In this document: positions 1,969 through 24,938 of the stretch, piece by piece | Numbering within the stretch: position 1 is the stretch's first letter | Layout: every line of letters begins with the position of its first letter | NCBI RefSeq assembly: GCF_017309385.1 | Contig: NZ_JAFJMJ010000003.1 | Location: 930,001-994,000, forward strand | Direction of reading: 5' to 3' | Source: Amycolatopsis sp. 195334CR | Lineage (GTDB): Bacteria > Actinomycetota > Actinomycetes > Mycobacteriales > Pseudonocardiaceae | DNA length: 64,000 bases | Notes under the pieces: model-generated | Told to the model about the DNA's origin: nothing | What the model saw: the letters and a program-made list of their open reading frames with translations, nothing else | Database searches by the model: none | Program-made: the position numbers and the translations under genes

Positions 1969-1980
1969 GGCGACCAACCT

Positions 1981-2144
1981 AGTGGTCGCCCCCGGAAGTC
2001 CTTCGGGGTCTCGACGGCCCAGCTTCCCGCTGGACGCACCGCGCAAAGGCCCGAGTACGACTCGGTACGAGGACCTTCACGCGGCACGCCCAGCGGAAAC
2101 CTGGATCCGCCGATACCCACGAAGGGCTTCCGGGGGCAACCACT
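1981..2144. repeat. Long imperfect inverted repeat (hairpin element, copy 1)
   Basis: Two arms of about 80 bases pair to form a hairpin across nearly the whole gap between two divergent genes. The outer 24 bases (AGTGGTCGCCCCCGGAAG...) match the other arm at 22 positions, with both differences allowing G-U pairs. Overall about four of five positions pair, with a 2-base indel. The tip reads CCGAGTAC-GACTCG-GTACGAGG, in which GA faces GA. A second copy with the same tip and shared sub-motifs lies at 10567-10726. Function unknown; it could be a non-coding mobile repeat, a structured leader or a bidirectional terminator. Confidence 0.85.
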
Positions 2145-2175
2145 GGTGGTCGTCCCCGTGGGATCATGCGCACTC

Positions 2176-3660
2176 GTGAGCGATCTTCCTGAGTTCTCCC
2201 CCGACTTCCGCGCCCGCCTGCGCGACGCGCTGCGCGAAGCCCGCTACGACACCGACGGGGTGGTGGAGGCGCTCGGCGGTGCCGCGCACGCCGCGCTCGG
2301 CCGCGGTGAGCCGGAACTGGCGTTCCGCGCCAGCCGGGACGCGGGCTCGCTCGGCGTGCTGATCCGGCTGTTCCTGCTGGGGTCCACCGAAAGCGAGGCG
2401 GCCGTCGCGGACGCGCTGCCGCTGGACGGTTCGCTCGAAGCCGGGCTGGTGCGCCGCGCCGAGAACGGCATCCGCGCCGGGCTCGACCTCCGGCCGCACG
2501 GGGACGACGACACCTCGTGGTGGGTGCTCTCCGACCTCGACTCCGACGTGCTCGGCCACCCGGTCCCCGAGGACCACGTGCTCGGGGTCGGGCACGCCTC
2601 GCTCAGCCTCATCCGCGCGACCAGCCGCCGCCCGGTCGGCAGCCTGCTCGACCTCGGCACCGGCAACGGCGTGCAGGCGCTGCACGCGAGCCGCCACGCG
2701 AGCCGGATCACCGCCACCGACATCTCCGACCGCGCGCTGGCACTGGCCAAGGCCACCTTCGCGCTCAACGAGGTGGACGTGGAGCTGGCGCGCGGCGAGT
2801 GGTTCGCACCGGTGGCGCGCCGCCGGTTCGACCAGATCGTCTGCAATCCCCCGTTCGTGGTGGGCCCGCCGCGGGTGGACTACGTCTACCGCGATTCCGG
2901 CCTCGGCGGCGACGACGCCAGCGCGCTCGTGATCCGCCAGCTGCCCTCGTTCCTCAACGAGGGTGGCGTCGGCCAGCTGCTCGCCTCGTGGCTGCACGTG
3001 AAGGGCGAGGATTGGGCCGATCGGGTGCACCGCTGGCTGCCCGCGGGCACCGACGCCTGGTTCGTCCAGCGGGACGTGGCCGATCCCGGGCTGTACGTCG
3101 GCACCTGGCTGCGTGACGCCGGGCTGGACCCGAAGTCGCCGGAGGGCCGCGCCAAGGCGGGTGCCTGGCTCGACTGGTTCGCCGAGCACGACGTCGAGGG
3201 CATCGGGTTCGGTTTTGTCACCCTGCGCCGGACCGGCGGCACGCCCACGGTGGTCTGCGAGGACCTGCGCCAGGCGTTCGACGATCCGCTCGGCGCCGAG
3301 GCGGCGGGCTGGCTCGACCGGGTGGACTGGCTGCGCGAGCACCACACCGAGTTGTTGGAGACGCGGTTCACCGTGCCGGACACGGTCGTGCTCGAACGGG
3401 TCGACAACGCCACCGACGAGGGCTGGCAGACCGCGATCCGCCGCCTGCACCGCACCGACGGGCCCGGCTGGCAGCACGAACTGGACGAGCTGGCCACCGC
3501 GCTGCTGGCGGGCTGCCGCGGCGCGCTGCCGCTGGAGGACCTGCTGGAGCTGCTGGCCTTCGGGCACGGCCAGGAGGTCGAGGAGCTGACCGAGGCCGCG
3601 CTGCCGGTGGTCCGCGAACTGGTGCGGCACGGCATGCTGCTGCCGGTGACCGGGCGATGA
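2176..3660 (+). CDS. Class I SAM-dependent methyltransferase with N-terminal extension
   Basis: A 494-residue protein. A helical N-terminal domain (about 1-140) precedes a Rossmann methyltransferase core with motif I LLDLGTGNG (158-165) and the catalytic-type motif IVCNPPF (224-227). NPPF motifs are typical of enzymes that methylate amide or amino nitrogens, such as PrmC/HemK. A C-terminal helical region follows. It matches an actinobacterial family annotated as DUF7059/methyltransferase; the substrate is unknown. The GTG at 2176 lies just after the hairpin element. The stop overlaps the dtd start by 4 bases (ATGA), so the two genes are co-translated. Confidence 0.8.
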   Translation: MSDLPEFSPDFRARLRDALREARYDTDGVVEALGGAAHAALGRGEPELAFRASRDAGSLGVLIRLFLLGSTESEAAVADALPLDGSLEAGLVRRAENGIRAGLDLRPHGDDDTSWWVLSDLDSDVLGHPVPEDHVLGVGHASLSLIRATSRRPVGSLLDLGTGNGVQALHASRHASRITATDISDRALALAKATFALNEVDVELARGEWFAPVARRRFDQIVCNPPFVVGPPRVDYVYRDSGLGGDDASALVIRQLPSFLNEGGVGQLLASWLHVKGEDWADRVHRWLPAGTDAWFVQRDVADPGLYVGTWLRDAGLDPKSPEGRAKAGAWLDWFAEHDVEGIGFGFVTLRRTGGTPTVVCEDLRQAFDDPLGAEAAGWLDRVDWLREHHTELLETRFTVPDTVVLERVDNATDEGWQTAIRRLHRTDGPGWQHELDELATALLAGCRGALPLEDLLELLAFGHGQEVEELTEAALPVVRELVRHGMLLPVTGR

Positions 3661-4082
3661 GGGCCGTGGTCGCCAGGGTGACCGAGGCGAGTGTCACAGT
3701 CGACGGCGAGGTGGTGGGCTCCATCACCGAACCGGGACTGCTGGTACTGCTCGGCATCCGCACCGACGACACCGAGGAACAGGCCGCGACGATGGCCAGG
3801 AAACTGCACGAACTTCGCATTCTTCGCGAAGAACGTTCGTGTGCCGACACCGGCGCGCCGCTGCTGGTGGTCAGCCAGTTCACCCTCTACGGCGAGACCC
3901 GCAAGGGCAGGCGGCCGTCCTGGGGCAACGCCGCCCGTGGGGATATAGCGGAAAAACTGGTGGATTCCGTGGTTTCCGAACTGCGCGGGCGCGGTGCGCC
4001 GGTGGCCACCGGCCGCTTCGGCGCGATGATGTCGGTGCACAGCGTGAACGACGGCCCGTTCACCGTGCTGGTCGAGGTCTGA
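3657..4082 (+). CDS. dtd: D-aminoacyl-tRNA deacylase
   Basis: A 141-residue enzyme that hydrolyses D-amino acids mischarged onto tRNA, a cytoplasmic proofreading function. Both family signatures are present: SQFTLYG (the SQxTL motif, near residue 77) and the C-terminal NDGPFTV. Length and the MRAVVARVTEASVTVDG start match the DTD family. It starts on an ATG overlapping the stop of the preceding methyltransferase. A DasR-like palindrome begins only 3 bases after its stop. Confidence 0.95.
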   Translation: MRAVVARVTEASVTVDGEVVGSITEPGLLVLLGIRTDDTEEQAATMARKLHELRILREERSCADTGAPLLVVSQFTLYGETRKGRRPSWGNAARGDIAEKLVDSVVSELRGRGAPVATGRFGAMMSVHSVNDGPFTVLVEV

Positions 4083-4085
4083 CGG

Positions 4086-4099
4086 GTGGTCTAGACCAC
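4086..4099. promoter_or_regulatory. Perfect 14-bp palindrome resembling a DasR box
   Basis: GTGGTCTAGACCAC is a perfect palindrome whose core TGGTCTAGACCA equals the core of the DasR (GntR/HutC-family, GlcNAc-sensing) response element described in streptomycetes. It lies 3 bases after dtd and about 265 bases before the sigB-like start. The sequence is seen directly; the identity of the binding protein is inferred. Confidence 0.6.
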
Positions 4100-4215
4100 A
4101 AGACGACGCTGACTCCCCGCTGTCACACCGAAGCTACTGAGCCGTTCTCAGGAAAAGCTCAGGCTTGCTGGAGCAACTTCGGCCTCCCCGGAGCCGTCTT
4201 CTCTTCGACGACTCG

Positions 4216-4241
4216 GGAACGTTTCGAGACACCGAGGCGTT
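4216..4241 (+). promoter_or_regulatory. Candidate SigE/SigH-type promoter of the sigB-like gene
   Basis: GGAAC at 4216-4220 and GTT at 4239-4241 are separated by 18 bases, matching the ECF sigma (SigE/SigH/SigR) promoter form GGAAC-N17-19-GTT. The start codon is about 120 bases downstream. In mycobacteria sigB is transcribed from a promoter of this class, so position and sequence agree. Not experimentally shown here. Confidence 0.6.
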
Positions 4242-4363
4242 GAACCGAATGTCCGGCCAGCCAGCCGGACTCACGAGACGGGTTCCACAGGCCCGTCCCG
4301 TGACGCACAGCGTTGGCGTGTGACGCCAGCCACACACGTCAGCCCGTGACCGGGGAGGCAGAA

Positions 4364-5443
4364 ATGTCAGTCCAGACTCTTGAGCGCGAAGCCAGGGGCA
4401 TTCGCCGCCGCAAGATTCCCAAGTCCGTTTCCGACGATACGGGCACTTCCTCCTCGAGCGCCACCTCGCCGGGCGCGCAGAGCGTCCAGCCCACCGCGCT
4501 GGTCCCCGAAGGCGCCGACCTCGACGCCCAGAGCCCGGCCGCCGACCTGGTCCGCGTCTACCTGAACGGGATCGGCAAGACGGCCCTGCTCACCGCGGCC
4601 GACGAGGTCGAGATCGCCAAGCGCATCGAGGCGGGCGTGTTCGCCCAGCACATGCTGGACACCGCCGCGGACCTCACCCCGAAGCGCCGCGCCGAGCTGT
4701 CCGCGCTGGTCCGCGACGGGGGCGTGGCCAAGAACCACCTGCTCGAGGCCAACCTGCGCCTGGTCGTCTCGCTGGCCAAGCGCTACACCGGCCGGGGCAT
4801 GCCGCTGCTGGACCTGATCCAGGAGGGGAACCTGGGCCTGATCCGCGCGGTGGAGAAGTTCGACTACTCCAAGGGCTTCAAGTTCTCCACCTACGCCACC
4901 TGGTGGATCCGCCAGGCCATCACCAGGGGCATGGCCGACCAGGGCCGCACCATCCGGCTGCCGGTCCACCTGGTCGAGCAGGTGAACAAGCTGGCCAGGA
5001 TCAAGCGCGACCTGCACCAGCAGCTGGGCCGCGAGGCCACCAACGAGGAGCTGGCCGCGGAGTCGGGCATCGCCGAGCACAAGATCGCCGACCTGCTCGA
5101 CCACGCGCGTGACCCGGTAAGCCTGGACATGCCGGTGGGCACCGAGGAGGACGCCCCGCTGGGCGACTTCATCGAGGACTCCGAGGCCACCGACGCCGAG
5201 AGCGCGGTGATCTCCGGCCTGCTGCAGGACGACCTGCGGCGCGTGCTGGCCACCCTGGACGACCGGGAGCAGCACGTGATCCGGCTGCGCTACGGCCTCG
5301 ACGACGGCCAGCCGCGCACGCTCGACCAGATCGGCAAGCACTTCGGGCTCTCCCGCGAGCGCGTCCGCCAGATCGAGCGGGAGGTCATGTCCAAGCTGCG
5401 CCAGGGTGAGCGGGCCGACCGCCTGCGGGCCTACGCCAGCTGA
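4364..5443 (+). CDS. sigB: Group 2 RNA polymerase sigma factor, SigB-like
   Basis: A 359-residue sigma-70 protein that directs RNA polymerase to promoters, probably in stress or stationary phase. Region 1.2 lies at about 57-90 ([17 protein letters not shown]). Region 2 is at about 128-197, with [17 protein letters not shown] and the [13 protein letters not shown] recognition helix. Region 3 is at about 198-280. Region 4 is at about 295-359, with the helix [19 protein letters not shown]. The short low-complexity N-terminus lacks the long extension of the principal sigma factor, favouring SigB. The ATG at 4364 follows GGGGAGG. An ECF-type promoter and a hairpin terminator flank it, so it is probably monocistronic. 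Confidence 0.85.
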
Positions 5444-5606
5444 TCCACCTGGCGCAACACGCAGTGTGACCGTTGTGCACCCGTTCGGCCGCGTTGACTT
5501 ATGACGTGTGTCACGAGACGGTCGGGGGCAGGCCTCCCGATCGTCTCGGCTCGGGCCACACCATGAGTTTCGCGGTGGGTGCTCCTCGCACGGCACCGCT
5601 TTCCCC

Positions 5607-5642
5607 GGAAGGTCGGGTCCGTCGGGGTGGGCCCGGCCTTCC
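5607..5642 (+). terminator. Rho-independent-type terminator after the sigB-like gene
   Basis: Arms GGAAGGTCGGGTCC and GGGCCCGGCCTTCC form a 14-pair stem (one A-C mismatch-type position replaced by G-U pairing) over a short loop, followed by GTTTATT. It sits in the 268-base gap between the sigma factor and fumarase, so it can end sigB transcription and isolate the fumarase gene. The rest of the gap shows no clear motif. Confidence 0.65.
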
Positions 5643-5711
5643 GTTTATTCGCGCTCTCCCGGCTGAGGTACGGTGCCAGCACCGAAATCCGCGTGCAAGG
5701 GAGCCCGCGCA

Positions 5712-7385
<1,674 letters not shown>

Positions 7386-7394
7386 GCCCTTCGC

Positions 7395-7832
7395 TCAGCC
7401 CGGGAACATTTCGGACAGGCGGGCCAGTGACTTCTCGATGCCCGCCTTGTTCCGCTTCGGGAACGGGCTGAGCGAGATCAGCAGCGGCACGCGCGCGGTC
7501 GACCAGTCGAAGGTCTCGGTGACCTGGGTGCGGCCGCCGTCGAGCGGGGTGAGCGCCCAGCGCCAGCGGTGGCCGTTGAAGTGGCGCCAGGCGATCAGGC
7601 GCCCCTCCTCGAACTCGACCACGGTGTTGAGGATCTTGTACGAGGCGCCCATCTTCATGTCCATGCCGAACTTGGCGCCGAGTTCGAGGCGTTCCGGGCC
7701 GCCGGACTGCGGGGCGAGCACGGTACCGGAGCCGTCGAGCAGCGGGTGCTTGGCCGGGTCCGCGAGCAGCTCGAAGATCTTGTCCGGCGTGGTGTTGATC
7801 GTCCGCGTGGACGAGACCTGACGTTGTCCCAT
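7395..7832 (-). CDS. SRPBCC / polyketide cyclase-like ligand-binding protein
   Basis: A 145-residue single-domain protein with the START/Bet v 1-type helix-grip pattern: SSTRTINTTPDKIFELLADP at the start, a central beta meander (AWRHFNGHRWRWALTPLDGG) and a long C-terminal helix. Such proteins bind hydrophobic ligands; no catalytic residues identify a reaction. It is convergent with fumarase, 9 bases apart. A possible terminator hairpin lies between its start and the lipoprotein gene upstream. Confidence 0.75.
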   Translation of the reverse strand: MGQRQVSSTRTINTTPDKIFELLADPAKHPLLDGSGTVLAPQSGGPERLELGAKFGMDMKMGASYKILNTVVEFEEGRLIAWRHFNGHRWRWALTPLDGGRTQVTETFDWSTARVPLLISLSPFPKRNKAGIEKSLARLSEMFPG

Positions 7833-7871
7833 GGGGACACCCTAGGGCGGATCCGGGGCCGGAACGGGGTT

Positions 7872-7907
7872 GTGGCCGGGAACACGCCCCGACATGTTCC
7901 CGGCCAC
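7872..7907. terminator. Perfect 13-bp inverted repeat between two minus-strand genes
   Basis: GTGGCCGGGAACA (7872-7884) and TGTTCCCGGCCAC (7895-7907) pair perfectly over a 10-base loop. It lies just downstream of the lipoprotein gene and upstream of the SRPBCC gene. There is no T-run, so it could be a factor-assisted terminator or an operator. Confidence 0.5.
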
Positions 7908-7928
7908 CGGCACTGTGGTCTTTCCCCG

Positions 7929-8453
7929 TTACTGCTTGCGCTGCTCGTGCTCGAGCACCACGGTCCGCTCGCCGAGCGGCTGCTCCAGTTCGACGGTCAG
8001 CGTCGGGTAGCGAATGTCCATTGTGCACGCGACGTTGCCACCTGGCTCGGTCTCGACCACGTTGACCACGACCTTCTCCGCGCTCTGCTCCTTGATCTCC
8101 AGGCTGGCCTTGCCGCAGCCGCCCTCCTGGGCACCGATGGAGAGCACCTTGCCGTCGGCCACCATGGCGACCTTCTTCGGGAAGCCCTCCGGGAGCTTCG
8201 CCGCGTCGATCTTCTGCTCCGGGATCGTGGTGCCCGCCTCCGGATCGGCCGGATCCGCGGGTTCCGCCCCGCCGGGCACCTTGCTCACCGGCGGCGCGGG
8301 CTGCGGTTCACCGGGGGCGATCTGGTCGGCGGGCGCACTCGCGGCGGGCGGCGGCGGTGCGGCGGCGGGCTGACTGCCGTTCTGTGGGCTGGCGCAGGCC
8401 GTACCGGCGAGCAGGACGACACCGACGCCAACCATCTTCGCTGAGTACCTCAT
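7929..8453 (-). CDS. Secreted lipoprotein, unknown function
   Basis: A 174-residue protein with a clear lipoprotein signal: basic MRYSAK, a hydrophobic core and lipobox LAGTAC, so Cys20 would be lipidated and the protein held on the outer face of the membrane. Residues about 21-65 form a Pro/Ala-rich linker. The C-terminal domain (about 75-174) is mostly beta and has two cysteines (EGGCGK and VACTMD) that may form a disulfide. No family recognised. Confidence 0.75.
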   Translation of the reverse strand: MRYSAKMVGVGVVLLAGTACASPQNGSQPAAAPPPPAASAPADQIAPGEPQPAPPVSKVPGGAEPADPADPEAGTTIPEQKIDAAKLPEGFPKKVAMVADGKVLSIGAQEGGCGKASLEIKEQSAEKVVVNVVETEPGGNVACTMDIRYPTLTVELEQPLGERTVVLEHEQRKQ

Positions 8454-8551
8454 GCCCAGTAGACGGAACGGGTGCCGAACGGGGTTGCACGGTACCTACT
8501 TTCGTATTGCCACCACCACTCCGGCGATCTTCCGTGTCTACTTAGGACGTT

Positions 8552-9670
8552 TCAGAGGCCCACCTCGGCGGCGGTTTCCTCGGCGATCGCCGGGGAACAG
8601 GTCATGCCGCGGCCGCCGGGTCCGGTGATCAGCCAGGCGTTGCCGCCGACGCGGGCGCGGTGCACCACCCGGTCGCGGTCGGCGCACTGGGCGTAGACAC
8701 CCGCCCAGCGGCGCACGATGCGCGGCAGCGGGCGGCCGAGCAGGTCCAGCGCCACCGCGTTGAGGTGGTCGTAGGGCTCCTCGGTGACGTCGAAGGCGAA
8801 CGGTTCCTCGTACTCGTGCGTGTCACCGATGGTCAGCCCACCATCGCGACGCTGCACCATCAGCAGTTGCATCCCGTGCCCGGCGGCGATTTCGGCCTGG
8901 GGCTGGGTGCGGTTGAGCTGGTCGAGCGCGGGACCGCGGTAGGCCGGGTAGTAGCGGAGGCTGTCGCCGTCGGCCACCGAGGTGGTCAGCGGGGTGCCGA
9001 GCGGCGCGGTCTGCGCCATCTGCAGGCGGACGCGGCGCACCGGGATCTCCCCGGCCAGCTCGCGGACCAGGCCACCGAGCGCGGCACCGGTGCAGAACAG
9101 CACGAGGTCGCCGCCGTGCCACTGGCCGGTCTGGTCGACGACGCCGAGTTCGGCGAGCCCGCGAACCTCACGGCCGGGCAGCCAGGTGTAGCGGCCGGTC
9201 GCGGTGAGGTACTCGCGCAGCGCGGGCTGCGCGGTACGCGGCTCGACGGCCGCGTCCCGCTCGCACCACAACGCGCCGAGGTAGTCGCCGCCGAGCGCGG
9301 GGTTGATCGCACGCGTCTCCTGGGCGTCGACCAGCTTGTGGCCACGCTCCGCCGCCTCCTCGCCCTTGGCGACCTCGGCGGCGACGGCCAGCTCGGCTTC
9401 GGTGCGCAGGACGGTCAGCGAGCCGTTGGCGCGGAAACCCAGTTCGGGCACCTTGGCGCCGATCTGCTCCCAGAGCTCGCGGGCGCGCAGGGCCGTGGTC
9501 AGCTCGGGACCGGTCGCGCGGCCACCCACCCAGACCAGCCCGAAGTTGCGCACCGACGCGCCGCGGGCCTCCAGCTCGCGATCGAGCTGGATCACCTCGT
9601 GGCCGCGTTCGACGGCCTGCCAGGCGTGCATGGTGCCGAGCACCCCGCCACCGACGATCAGAATTCGCAT
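8552..9670 (-). CDS. FAD-dependent oxidoreductase of the TIGR03364 type
   Basis: A 372-residue D-amino-acid-oxidase/glycine-oxidase-fold flavoprotein. The N-terminus is a dinucleotide-binding motif (MRILIVGGGVLG) and the C-terminus has the second FAD contact (WLITGPGGRGMTCSPA). SVRNFGLVWVGGR after the first strand is typical of the subfamily I recall as TIGR03364, often associated with aminophosphonate (2-aminoethylphosphonate) use. That substrate is inferred and no other phosphonate gene is visible. The ATG at 9670 places the Rossmann motif at the N-terminus. It follows the GntR gene on the same strand. Confidence 0.75.
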   Translation of the reverse strand: MRILIVGGGVLGTMHAWQAVERGHEVIQLDRELEARGASVRNFGLVWVGGRATGPELTTALRARELWEQIGAKVPELGFRANGSLTVLRTEAELAVAAEVAKGEEAAERGHKLVDAQETRAINPALGGDYLGALWCERDAAVEPRTAQPALREYLTATGRYTWLPGREVRGLAELGVVDQTGQWHGGDLVLFCTGAALGGLVRELAGEIPVRRVRLQMAQTAPLGTPLTTSVADGDSLRYYPAYRGPALDQLNRTQPQAEIAAGHGMQLLMVQRRDGGLTIGDTHEYEEPFAFDVTEEPYDHLNAVALDLLGRPLPRIVRRWAGVYAQCADRDRVVHRARVGGNAWLITGPGGRGMTCSPAIAEETAAEVGL

Positions 9671-9743
9671 GCCGCCGACGGTCGCCGCCGCCGGTGAACG
9701 CTTCACGACCACCCGGCGAACCCGAGCCGAACCGGCCCGCAAC

Positions 9744-9759
9744 ATTGGACCGAACCAGT
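9744..9759. promoter_or_regulatory. Candidate GntR/HutC operator
   Basis: ATTGGACCGAACCAGT contains the imperfect palindrome TTGG-N5-ACCA, of the TGG-N-CCA form bound by many GntR/HutC regulators. It lies in the 108-base gap between the GntR gene and the flavoprotein gene it may control. Confidence 0.4.
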
Positions 9760-9778
9760 TACTTTTCCGTTATCTACT

Positions 9779-10552
9779 TCACGGTGTGAGGCGGGTCGAG
9801 AAGCTGAGCCGGTCGCCTCGGTAAAGCGAGCGCACCCGTTCGAACGGCCGCCCGTCCGTCCCCCACGAGACCCGGTGCAGGAGCAACATCGGCAACGCCG
9901 GGTTCGTGCCGATCAGCAGGGCCTCCCGCGGGGTGGTCAGCACCGTCTCCAGCCGTTCGTCCGCACCGCCGAAGCTCAGCCCGAAGTGGTTCCGGAGGCA
10001 CGCGTACAGCGACTCCGCCGGATCGAAGACGTCCAGCAGGCCGGGGAACCGCTCGGCCACCAGGTAGGTCGACTCCAGGCCGACGCGTTCCCCGTCGGCG
10101 AGCAGGACGCGTTCGAGGTGCACCACCGGCTCGTCGCGCGGGACGCGGAGGTCCGCGCCCAGCGCCGCCCCGGCGGGCACGGTCTCCAGGGTGATCAGCG
10201 CCCGCCCCGGTTCGATGCCCTGCTGCCGCAGTCCTTCGGTGTAGCTGACCAGTGCCAGCGGCTGCACCAGCTTCGGCCCGGCGACGAAGGTGCCGCTGCC
10301 CTGCCGCCTGCTCAGCCTGCCCTCCAGCACCAGCTCGCCCACCGCCTGCCGGATCGTCGCCCGTGAGACGTCGAACCGCTCGACGAGTTCGCGTTCGGTG
10401 GGCAGCGCGGCGCCCTCCCCCAGCTCGGCGATCAGGCCGAGCAGCTCGACCTTGATCGCGTAGTACCGCGGGATCCGGCCGTGCTCGGGAACGCCGTCCC
10501 GCACCGGCCCGCCGCCACTGGCCGGCGGCGGCGTGTTCGAAGTCTCAGGCAC
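9779..10552 (-). CDS. GntR family (HutC subfamily) transcriptional regulator
   Basis: A 257-residue regulator. The winged helix lies at about residues 30-95 (LPTERELVERFDVSRATIRQ followed by the wing RRQGSGTFV). A C-terminal UTRA/chorismate-lyase-like ligand domain (about 105-257) includes LERVLLADGERVGLESTYL, typical of the HutC subfamily. The GTG at 10552 follows AGGGTGG; a TTG two codons upstream is also possible. It is upstream of, and co-directional with, the flavoprotein gene, which it probably regulates. The effector is unknown. Confidence 0.85.
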   Translation of the reverse strand: MPETSNTPPPASGGGPVRDGVPEHGRIPRYYAIKVELLGLIAELGEGAALPTERELVERFDVSRATIRQAVGELVLEGRLSRRQGSGTFVAGPKLVQPLALVSYTEGLRQQGIEPGRALITLETVPAGAALGADLRVPRDEPVVHLERVLLADGERVGLESTYLVAERFPGLLDVFDPAESLYACLRNHFGLSFGGADERLETVLTTPREALLIGTNPALPMLLLHRVSWGTDGRPFERVRSLYRGDRLSFSTRLTP

Positions 10553-10566
10553 GAGCAACCACCCTA

Positions 10567-10726
10567 GGCGCTGTCCGGCGAGTCAAGCTCGCGGTCTTCG
10601 CGCCCAGCCGGCCCCTGGCGGCACGGGCGGATCGGCCGAGTACGGCCAGTACGAGGCCGACCCGCCCGCACCGCCAGGAACCACCTGGATCACGAAGCCC
10701 ATCGAGCAGACTCACCGGACAGCGCC
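10567..10726. repeat. Long imperfect inverted repeat (hairpin element, copy 2)
   Basis: The outer arms GGCGCTGTCCGGCGAGTC (10567-10584) and GACTCACCGGACAGCGCC (10709-10726) match at 17 of 18 positions. The inner arms at 10614-10643 and 10649-10678 pair over about 25 of 30. The tip is CCGAGTAC-GGCCA-GTACGAGG, the same 8-base stems as copy 1 at 1981-2144. Both copies also share CCTGGATC and CACGAAG in the right arm. Like copy 1 it lies between divergently transcribed genes. Confidence 0.85.
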
Positions 10727-10744
10727 TGCACTCGACCTCGTAGG

Positions 10745-24881: not shown

Positions 24882-24938
24882 GTGCTGTGAATGTGGCTTT
24901 CACGGCGAATTCGGCAGTGAAAGCCACATTCACAGCAC
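24882..24938. terminator. Perfect 22-bp hairpin between convergent genes
   Basis: The arms at 24882-24903 and 24917-24938 (GTGCTGTGAATGTGGCTTTC...) are exact reverse complements around a 13-base loop containing GAATTC. It lies 13 bases after fadA5 and before the convergent PPOX gene, so it can act as a bidirectional terminator. It is followed by two near-identical 15-base direct repeats (CACAGCACGCGGGGT). I recall this AAAGCCACATTCAC motif as a common intergenic repeat in Amycolatopsis-type genomes. Confidence 0.75.

What the first reader, a model, noticed from the sequence alone, without database searches (positions are those of the whole stretch)
1981..10726. Two-copy family of about 160-bp hairpin elements with an identical GA-mismatch tip
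Seen directly: copy 1 (1981-2144) and copy 2 (10567-10726) are long imperfect inverted repeats lying between divergently transcribed genes. Both end in CCGAGTAC-loop-GTACGAGG, where GA faces GA inside an otherwise paired stem, and both share CCTGGATC and CACGAAG in the right arm. Arms differ mostly by changes that keep G-C or G-U pairing, and the loop differs (GACTCG versus GGCCA). Tandem G-A pairs are a known RNA structural motif, so a conserved tip suggests selection on an RNA fold rather than on a DNA palindrome alone. I do not recognise a named family; it could be an undescribed structured RNA or non-autonomous repeat.
Basis: seen in the sequence. Interest (0 to 1): 0.78.

Follow-up and report, generated by a model that had tools for sequence, protein, structure and literature searches.

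The report
Mobile RNA-like hairpin repeat in actinobacteria
The two hairpins are copies of a small mobile repeat that sits in CTAG sites of actinobacterial genomes, and evolution has kept one of its two strands foldable like an RNA, which suggests that the repeat carries or moves as a structured RNA (or single-stranded DNA) rather than being just a DNA palindrome.

Summary
A covariance model from copies of the window's order finds Streptomyces and Embleya plasmid copies (E down to 2e-15). Elements run 165-178 bp between CTAG ends. Copy 1's site is empty in three relatives, with one CTAG or ATAG left, and three copies in one relative are 97.8-99.4% alike in unrelated flanks. So it is mobile. 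The decisive result concerns strand. Changes that break a Watson-Crick pair make G-U on that strand 253 times and A-C 67 times (112:11 in the inner stem); unpaired columns show no comparable bias, so this looks like selection, not mutation. The GA-GA tip is UC-UC on the selected strand. Outer arms pair with less strand bias, like DNA terminal repeats. IS5-type elements in the same genome have similar ends, but no IS-length pair with the end patterns tried was found in eight other genomes. Mobiliser and transcription are unproven.

The parts
1979..2146 (-). Element copy 1 (subfamily A), CTAG...CTGG; hairpin favoured on the minus strand
   Evidence: CM R1 match 1996-2127 on the minus strand, 111.7 bits (training member)
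1979..1982 (.). left terminal CTAG of copy 1; at the empty site CTAG in G054, ATAG in G003 and G027
2143..2146 (.). right terminal CTGG of copy 1 (degenerate CTAG)
2051..2072 (.). apical motif of copy 1, CCGAGTAC-loop-GTACGAGG (CCUCGUAC...GUACUCGG on the minus strand)
10564..10729 (-). Element copy 2 (subfamily B), CTAG...CTGC; hairpin favoured on the minus strand
   Evidence: CM R1 match 10581-10711 on the minus strand, 117.4 bits (training member)
10564..10567 (.). left terminal CTAG of copy 2
10636..10656 (.). apical motif of copy 2
10564..10585 (.). outer arm (terminal-inverted-repeat-like) of copy 2, CTAGGCGCTGTCCGGCGAGTCA; 11 of its first 15 bp equal the IS5-type end CTAGGGCGTGTCCTG
   Evidence: match counted by eye

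Best explanation
A non-autonomous mobile element of about 165 bp with two modules. The outer ~20-25 bp on each side act as DNA ends (terminal inverted repeats) and the element sits in CTAG, often the stop codon of a gene. Shown: dispersal, CTAG ends, strand-specific selection on pairing. Inferred: that the folded strand is RNA (about 65:35 over single-stranded DNA); that it is needed for the element's own mobilisation or persistence rather than for the host; that a transposase acting in trans (IS5-type or unknown) moves it.
For: Copies: 24 in this genome; 304 pattern hits (my sum) in 36 of 80 congeneric genomes, own included, against 2 for the reversed-pattern control. Mobility: copy 1 absent at the orthologous site in three relatives; of four G072 copies compared, three are 97.8-99.4% identical and the fourth 94.4-96.4%, with no match in 400-bp flanks. 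Target: CTAG at the left end in 78, right in 90, both in 59 of 149 elements, against 29 of 9164 flank windows; stop codon at the element edge in 77 of 118 sides with a gene pointing in (heuristic gene calls). Pairing: 32 sequences, 37 pairs, 96.9% paired, covariation 0.564 against shuffled 0.180 and slid 0.083-0.117; 201 WC-to-WC double changes against 2-27 slid. Strand: complement more stable in 119 of 119, G-U 9.7 against 0.6 per element; 253 G-U against 67 A-C events, 49 against 3 column pairs; inner pairs 112:11, slid controls between 30:33 and 61:16; unpaired columns C>T 104, G>A 80, A>G 45, T>C 59 but WC pairs C>T 136, G>A 35, A>G 117, T>C 32. Two modules: G-U:A-C 38:25, 23:10, 47:18 near the foot, then 33:3 to 37:1 towards the tip. 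Homology to Streptomyces/Embleya copies by CM.
Against: No transcript seen. A full-length RNA cannot start from a promoter inside the element, and neighbours do not preferentially read the favoured strand: 68 sides would give the other strand and 50 this one. The slid control is not flat: with partners moved by -1 the inner ratio is still 61:16. Two of 11 Streptomycetaceae plasmid loci fold better on the other strand. No mobiliser is fixed: PF13340 is absent in 3 of 11 element-bearing genomes, including the richest, G072; no IS-length pair with the tried end patterns in six genomes or in two distant ones. RVT_1 is absent in G000, G027 and G072. Only one locus has an examined empty site.
Confidence: 0.6

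Rival explanations
1. The favoured strand folds as single-stranded DNA: a strand-specific hairpin substrate for a tyrosine (HUH) transposase or another single-strand recombinase, as in REP/RAYT, IS200/IS605 ends or integron attC sites (recalled comparisons). CTAG would be both target and cleavage site.
For: Needs no promoter and no orientation relative to genes. Single CTAG or ATAG at the empty site. Conserved tip and fixed internal mismatches are what such enzymes recognise (general knowledge; RAYT on single-stranded REP in PMC3733652, passages).
Against: G-T and A-C differ less in DNA than in RNA stability (general knowledge), whereas the inner bias is 112:11. Strand bias is weakest at the foot, next to the presumed cleavage sites.
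Confidence: 0.22
2. An ordinary MITE moved by IS5-type DDE transposases. Its two arms are kept alike by hairpin-templated repair of an imperfect palindrome; no RNA or single-strand function.
For: IS5-family elements of 948-949 bp sit in the same genome with CTAGGGCGTGTCCTG ends (NF033580); one B copy (L013) shares 14 bp of that end. CTAG ends. Arms of one element match while sequences differ between elements.
Against: Does not explain the strand-specific G-U excess; the same strand preference is seen in 24 of 24 similar hairpins folded from three distant genomes. Fixed internal mismatches persist. The inner core is more conserved than the ends. No matching IS found in the richest genome for the end pattern tried.
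Confidence: 0.12
3. A host-useful 3'-end element (terminator, RNA stabiliser or RNase III site), as proposed for NEMIS/ERIC-like repeats.
For: 77 of 118 gene-facing sides abut a stop codon. Stable hairpins. NEMIS and ERIC are described as co-transcribed hairpins (PMC1590033, passages).
Against: No preferred orientation to the upstream gene (68:50 towards the wrong strand). Patchy presence (36 of 80). Both window copies lie between divergent ORFs.
Confidence: 0.06

Closest known systems
NEMIS/Correia and ERIC palindromic MITEs
   Same: dispersed imperfect palindromes of similar size (size recalled), near genes, co-transcribed and able to fold as RNA hairpins (passages of PMC1590033)
   Different: no sequence relation known to me; here CTAG ends, many end types on one core, strand-specific covariation measured, actinobacterial host range
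GTAG/CGTC REP elements and RAYT transposases
   Same: extragenic hairpins, often downstream of genes, G-T pairs noted in stems (PMC3733652, passages)
   Different: REPs are 20-40 bp with one tagged end; these are 165-178 bp with CTAG-like ends on both sides; the paper's main text has 0 occurrences of 'actinobacteria' and 'Streptomyces'
IS5 family insertion sequences
   Same: CTAG-bounded ends; CTAGGGCGTGTCCTG shares 14 bp with one B copy and 11 of 15 with window copy 2
   Different: hairpins have no transposase; for the other end types tried, no IS-length partner was found
Structured RNA families in Rfam
   Same: covarying stem with conserved apical motif
   Different: no Rfam 15 match at gathering in the window; in 9 element-bearing loci scanned permissively no match overlaps the element

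Membership tests
MITE (non-autonomous DDE element) | dispersed copies with empty sites | tested here: met
   empty site examined at one locus only
MITE (non-autonomous DDE element) | short terminal inverted repeats and target duplication | tested here: met
   paired ends; CTAG at both ends in 59 of 149, one CTAG or ATAG when empty at one locus; 2-bp TA and 4-bp CTAG duplication cannot be told apart
MITE (non-autonomous DDE element) | ends shared with an autonomous IS in the genome | tested here: inconclusive
   similar ends on IS5-type elements in G000; none for pattern TARGNCGTGTYTSA in G003, G035, G038, G070, G072, G327 or TCCATARRTACGG in G453, G495; other end types not tried there
REP/RAYT | 20-40 bp hairpin with a GTAG or CGTC tag at one end | tested here: not met
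   165-178 bp with CTAG-like ends on both sides
REP/RAYT | associated Y1 transposase | not tested
   The genome search cap reached
Described Rfam family | match above gathering score | tested here: not met
Structured RNA | covariation beyond controls | tested here: met
Structured RNA | transcript from the predicted strand | not testable with these tools
   no transcriptome data
NEMIS/ERIC-like repeat | co-transcription with neighbour genes | not testable with these tools
   no transcriptome data; gene orientation 68:50 against the favoured strand

The most novel reading that the evidence does not exclude
The folded strand itself is what a still unknown actinobacterial mobiliser recognises: the apical motif and internal loop identify it, the arms only need to pair, and the element spreads into CTAG as a bacterial counterpart of a SINE (RNA) or of a single-strand transposon (DNA). 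This would explain hypervariable but paired arms, the autonomous partner not found, and copies of different subfamily or orientation at one site.
Probability: 0.25. Interest if true: 0.85.

Novelty: new variant of a known kind. Interest (0 to 1): 0.62.

Why it matters
A repeat family found in Pseudonocardiaceae and Streptomycetaceae, with no Rfam match and no description in the paper listings searched here, shows strong strand-specific selection on folding while behaving as a mobile element. It makes an open question testable: whether bacterial palindromic repeats move or persist through a folded RNA or single strand. It also gives a covariance model to annotate intergenic regions in antibiotic producers; 125 places in plasmid records alone match one Streptomyces copy.

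Tried and rejected
Viral origin: a 22-letter pattern gave 0 viral contigs; a looser pattern gave 72 stretches, of which 71 were folded; I saw the 14 best folds, none the full hairpin, and the rest have fewer spanning pairs. Phage and plasmid BLAST with window copy 2 gave nothing; copy 1 gave one Azospirillum plasmid hit that does not fold as this hairpin. Plasmid BLAST with L310 and with a stretch of L302 gave nothing. Reverse transcriptase partner: RVT_1 in 53 of 80 genomes but absent in G000, G027, G072. Strand-biased deamination as cause of the G-U excess: rejected by the unpaired-column control. Order-level hits: of the 20 new loci L059-L078 only L063 and L076 were hairpins. Distant hairpins: of 26 loci L309-L335 (L312 left out; genomes G396, G453, G495) tried, 24 gave a fold, all more stable on the predicted strand, though four have only 22-40 pairs spanning the tip; the model gives E 0.06-0.26 for 4 of the 15 of them searched and nothing for the rest, so homology is not claimed. 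Dropped rows: of 139 loci collected, 11 (coding, truncated, irregular or duplicate) were left out before extraction, giving 128; 9 more irregular ones were left out of the fold statistics (119), and 149 (119 plus 30 from G072) entered the alignment. The tip pattern used for collecting makes the tip look invariant; that conservation is ascertained, not measured. I planned a joined-flank query for more empty sites and did not run it.
Full report
Observation. The two hairpins are present at the stated places, far more stable than shuffled sequence (z -12.0 and -11.7), and the tip pattern does not arise in 100 shuffles of the window. Bounded by CTAG-like ends, copy 1 is 1979-2146 and copy 2 is 10564-10729. 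Both lie between divergent ORFs by my reading. No third copy in the window was found by the covariance model (next best E 0.33).

Copies. In the window's genome (9.93 Mb, 7 contigs) the pattern GAGTAC-N3-10-GTACGAG has 27 hits; I judge 24 to fold as full hairpins and 3 to be coding chance matches. I sort them into two subfamilies, A (11, including window copy 1) and B (13, including copy 2). In the genus, 36 of 80 genomes (own included) have the longer pattern, 304 hits by my addition of the table, against 2 for the reversed-pattern control; the richest have 37 (G072) and 32 (G070). Not every hit is an element: of 30 loci returned there, 4 are coding and 3 truncated or irregular by my reading of the folds. 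In an order-wide draw 35 of 298 genomes have a hit; of its 20 newly fetched loci two proved to be hairpins, L063 from another family and L076 from another genus. G327 in another genus of the same family has 14 hits, of which I fetched 12 and left out three as irregular (L189, L194, L196). In named genomes an exact pattern gave 17 stretches, of which I judge five to be the hairpin: Labedaea rhizosphaerae, Amycolatopsis suaedae (two), Prauserella flavalba and Streptomyces sp. NBRC 110028.

Ends, target and movement. Terminal sequences are CTAG or variants of it, followed by arms that match each other within an element but differ between elements: for example CTAGTGGTCACC, CTAGGCGCTGTCC, CTAGGGCGTGTTTCAC, CTAGTGTCCTGCG. 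CTAG stands at the left end in 78, the right in 90 and both in 59 of 149 elements, against 29 of 9164 flank windows of 20 nt; the 59 measure 165-178 bp, median 167. Copy 1 is missing at the orthologous site in G054, G003 and G027, where one CTAG (G054) or ATAG remains. Where a neighbour gene points at the element, its stop codon falls at the element's edge in 77 of 118 sides (genes called by open frame and GC position, not by annotation), as expected if CTAG insertions survive mainly at stop codons. In the annotated plasmid record L408 a gene ends at 1453 and the element's CTAG is 1450-1453. Of four G072 copies compared, three are 97.8-99.4% identical over 169-179 bp and the fourth is 94.4-96.4% identical to them; 400-bp flanks give no match beyond the element. 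At orthologous sites, L023/L160, L202/L214/L227/L237, L036/L228 and L213/L224 look like one element inherited, and L054/L211 is a further shared site. L009 against L168/L179 is one site with subfamily A in one species and B in two others, and L006/L177 is one site with opposite orientation.

Pairing. On 32 diverse inner regions, 37 consensus pairs are 96.9% paired; covariation is 0.564 against 0.180 shuffled (0 of 500 reach it) and 0.083-0.117 with partners slid; 27 of 37 pairs have compensating changes. On 149 elements and 76 pairs with a tree, Watson-Crick to Watson-Crick double changes number 201, against 2-27 when partners are slid by 1 to 3 columns. In the inherited pair L023/L160 I read two such double changes by eye.

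Strand. Because copies share ancestry I counted events on the tree: breaks of a Watson-Crick pair give G-U 253 times and A-C 67 times; 49 column pairs lean to G-U and 3 to A-C. For inner pairs the ratio is 112:11; with partners slid by -3 to +3 it is 33:43, 30:33, 61:16, 32:45, 43:39 and 54:31, so one slide (-1) also leans to G-U, though less. For outer pairs it is 141:56, against 61:40, 59:34, 74:34, 64:47, 68:57 and 72:48 slid, so the outer excess is only modestly above control. Mutation bias does not explain the inner excess: unpaired columns show C>T 104 to G>A 80 and A>G 45 to T>C 59, while paired columns show C>T 136 to G>A 35 and A>G 117 to T>C 32, both directions leading to G-U. Palindrome repair has no reason to prefer one strand. 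The bias is weak near the foot (38:25, 23:10, 47:18) and strong from there to the tip (33:3, 21:2, 12:2, 30:2, 12:4, 37:1). I read this as two modules: DNA ends outside, a folded single strand inside. Limits: parsimony counts, a sequence alignment not made with structure, and some outer columns poorly aligned.

Wider family. A model from 32 sequences of the window's order (31 from its family, L063 from another) matches full length, outside its training set, Streptomyces and Embleya plasmid loci: L415 2e-15, L416 1.5e-12, L414 2.4e-12, L408 4e-9, L409 5e-9, L413 6e-9, L412 2.5e-8, L418 3.4e-8, and the Streptomyces contig L302 2.5e-12; partial matches in L410, L411, L417. L408 had been reached by BLAST from a G072 element, and BLAST with L408 finds 70 plasmid records (66 Streptomyces, 2 Embleya, 2 Streptantibioticus) with 125 places, 40 records listed; I fetched 10 of these hits. 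Five measured CTAG to CTAG are 164-225 bp. These share an internal motif GCAAGGCGGAG...GACAACGC with several subfamilies of the window's order. In folds of 11 plasmid loci the predicted strand is the more stable in 9; L412 and L417 go the other way. Three distant genomes, G396, G453 and G495, hold hairpins of like architecture, again more stable on the predicted strand in 24 of 24 folded, but the model does not reach significance for them.

What moves it. IS5-family elements in the same genome, 948-949 bp, have CTAGGGCGTGTCCTG ends. On one of them (L110) the first ORF passes the NF033580 cut-off (124.4 against 110 bits) and the second falls below it (99.9). One B copy (L013) shares 14 bp of that end; window copy 2 shares 11 of 15 (counted by eye). 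Short palindromes of 60-64 bp with B-type ends (L111, L112) and shortened forms (L115, L120) also occur. Yet PF13340 is found in 8 of 11 element-bearing genomes and not in G072, G024 or G327. IS-length pairs with the end pattern TARGNCGTGTYTSA are absent in G003, G035, G038, G070, G072, G327, and the unpaired hits fetched there show no distal end either (16 of 20 regions were long enough to tell). The pattern TCCATARRTACGG gives none in G453 and G495, though it caught only 5 and 17 sites there. Other end types were not tried in those genomes. RVT_1 is absent in G000, G027 and G072. HUH transposases were not searched. The mobiliser is open.

How it likely works. A trans-acting transposase takes the element by its DNA ends and inserts it at CTAG; the inner hairpin is kept because it acts as a folded strand, by RNA-like G-U tolerance most likely RNA. 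Since nothing seen here ties it to host genes (patchy, no favourable orientation: 68 sides would read the other strand, 50 this one), the fold probably serves the element. This last step is inference.

Known relatives. Ten paper searches in the open library: in the titles and abstract starts listed (four lists were cut at 15 or 20 rows) I saw no description of this family. I read passages, not whole texts, of PMC4681348, PMC1590033, PMC11109978 and PMC3733652. My recollection that such palindromes are common in Streptomyces chromosomes comes from no call.

Noticed in passing
L009, L168, L179 (one orthologous site) and L006, L177: Same insertion site carries a different subfamily in one species, or the element in the opposite orientation: repeated insertion, replacement or inversion.
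   Followed up: partly
L109, L110 (also L114, L117): IS5-family elements in the window's genome with two ORFs (seen in L109, L110) and CTAGGGCGTGTCCTGCGGATCTT ends.
   Followed up: partly
L131, L137: Other IS5-type ends in relatives: CTAGCGCGTGTTTCAAAGG (G027) and CTAGGGCCCGTCCTCAAAGC (G054).
   Followed up: no
L111:238-297, L112:306-369, L115, L120: 60-64 bp palindromes with B-type ends and other shortened forms that lack the tip.
   Followed up: partly
L239-L245 (G327): Hairpins or short palindromes, and some single ends, sharing CTARGNCGTGTCTGA but with different or missing inner parts.
   Followed up: no
window 24882-24938: A 25-bp, 96% complementary inverted repeat with a 7-nt loop, perhaps a terminator.
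   Followed up: no
L309-L335 (G453, G495, G396): Hairpins with TTCCATAAATACGGT-like arms and GTACTCGG tips in distant Actinobacteriota; homology unproven.
   Followed up: partly
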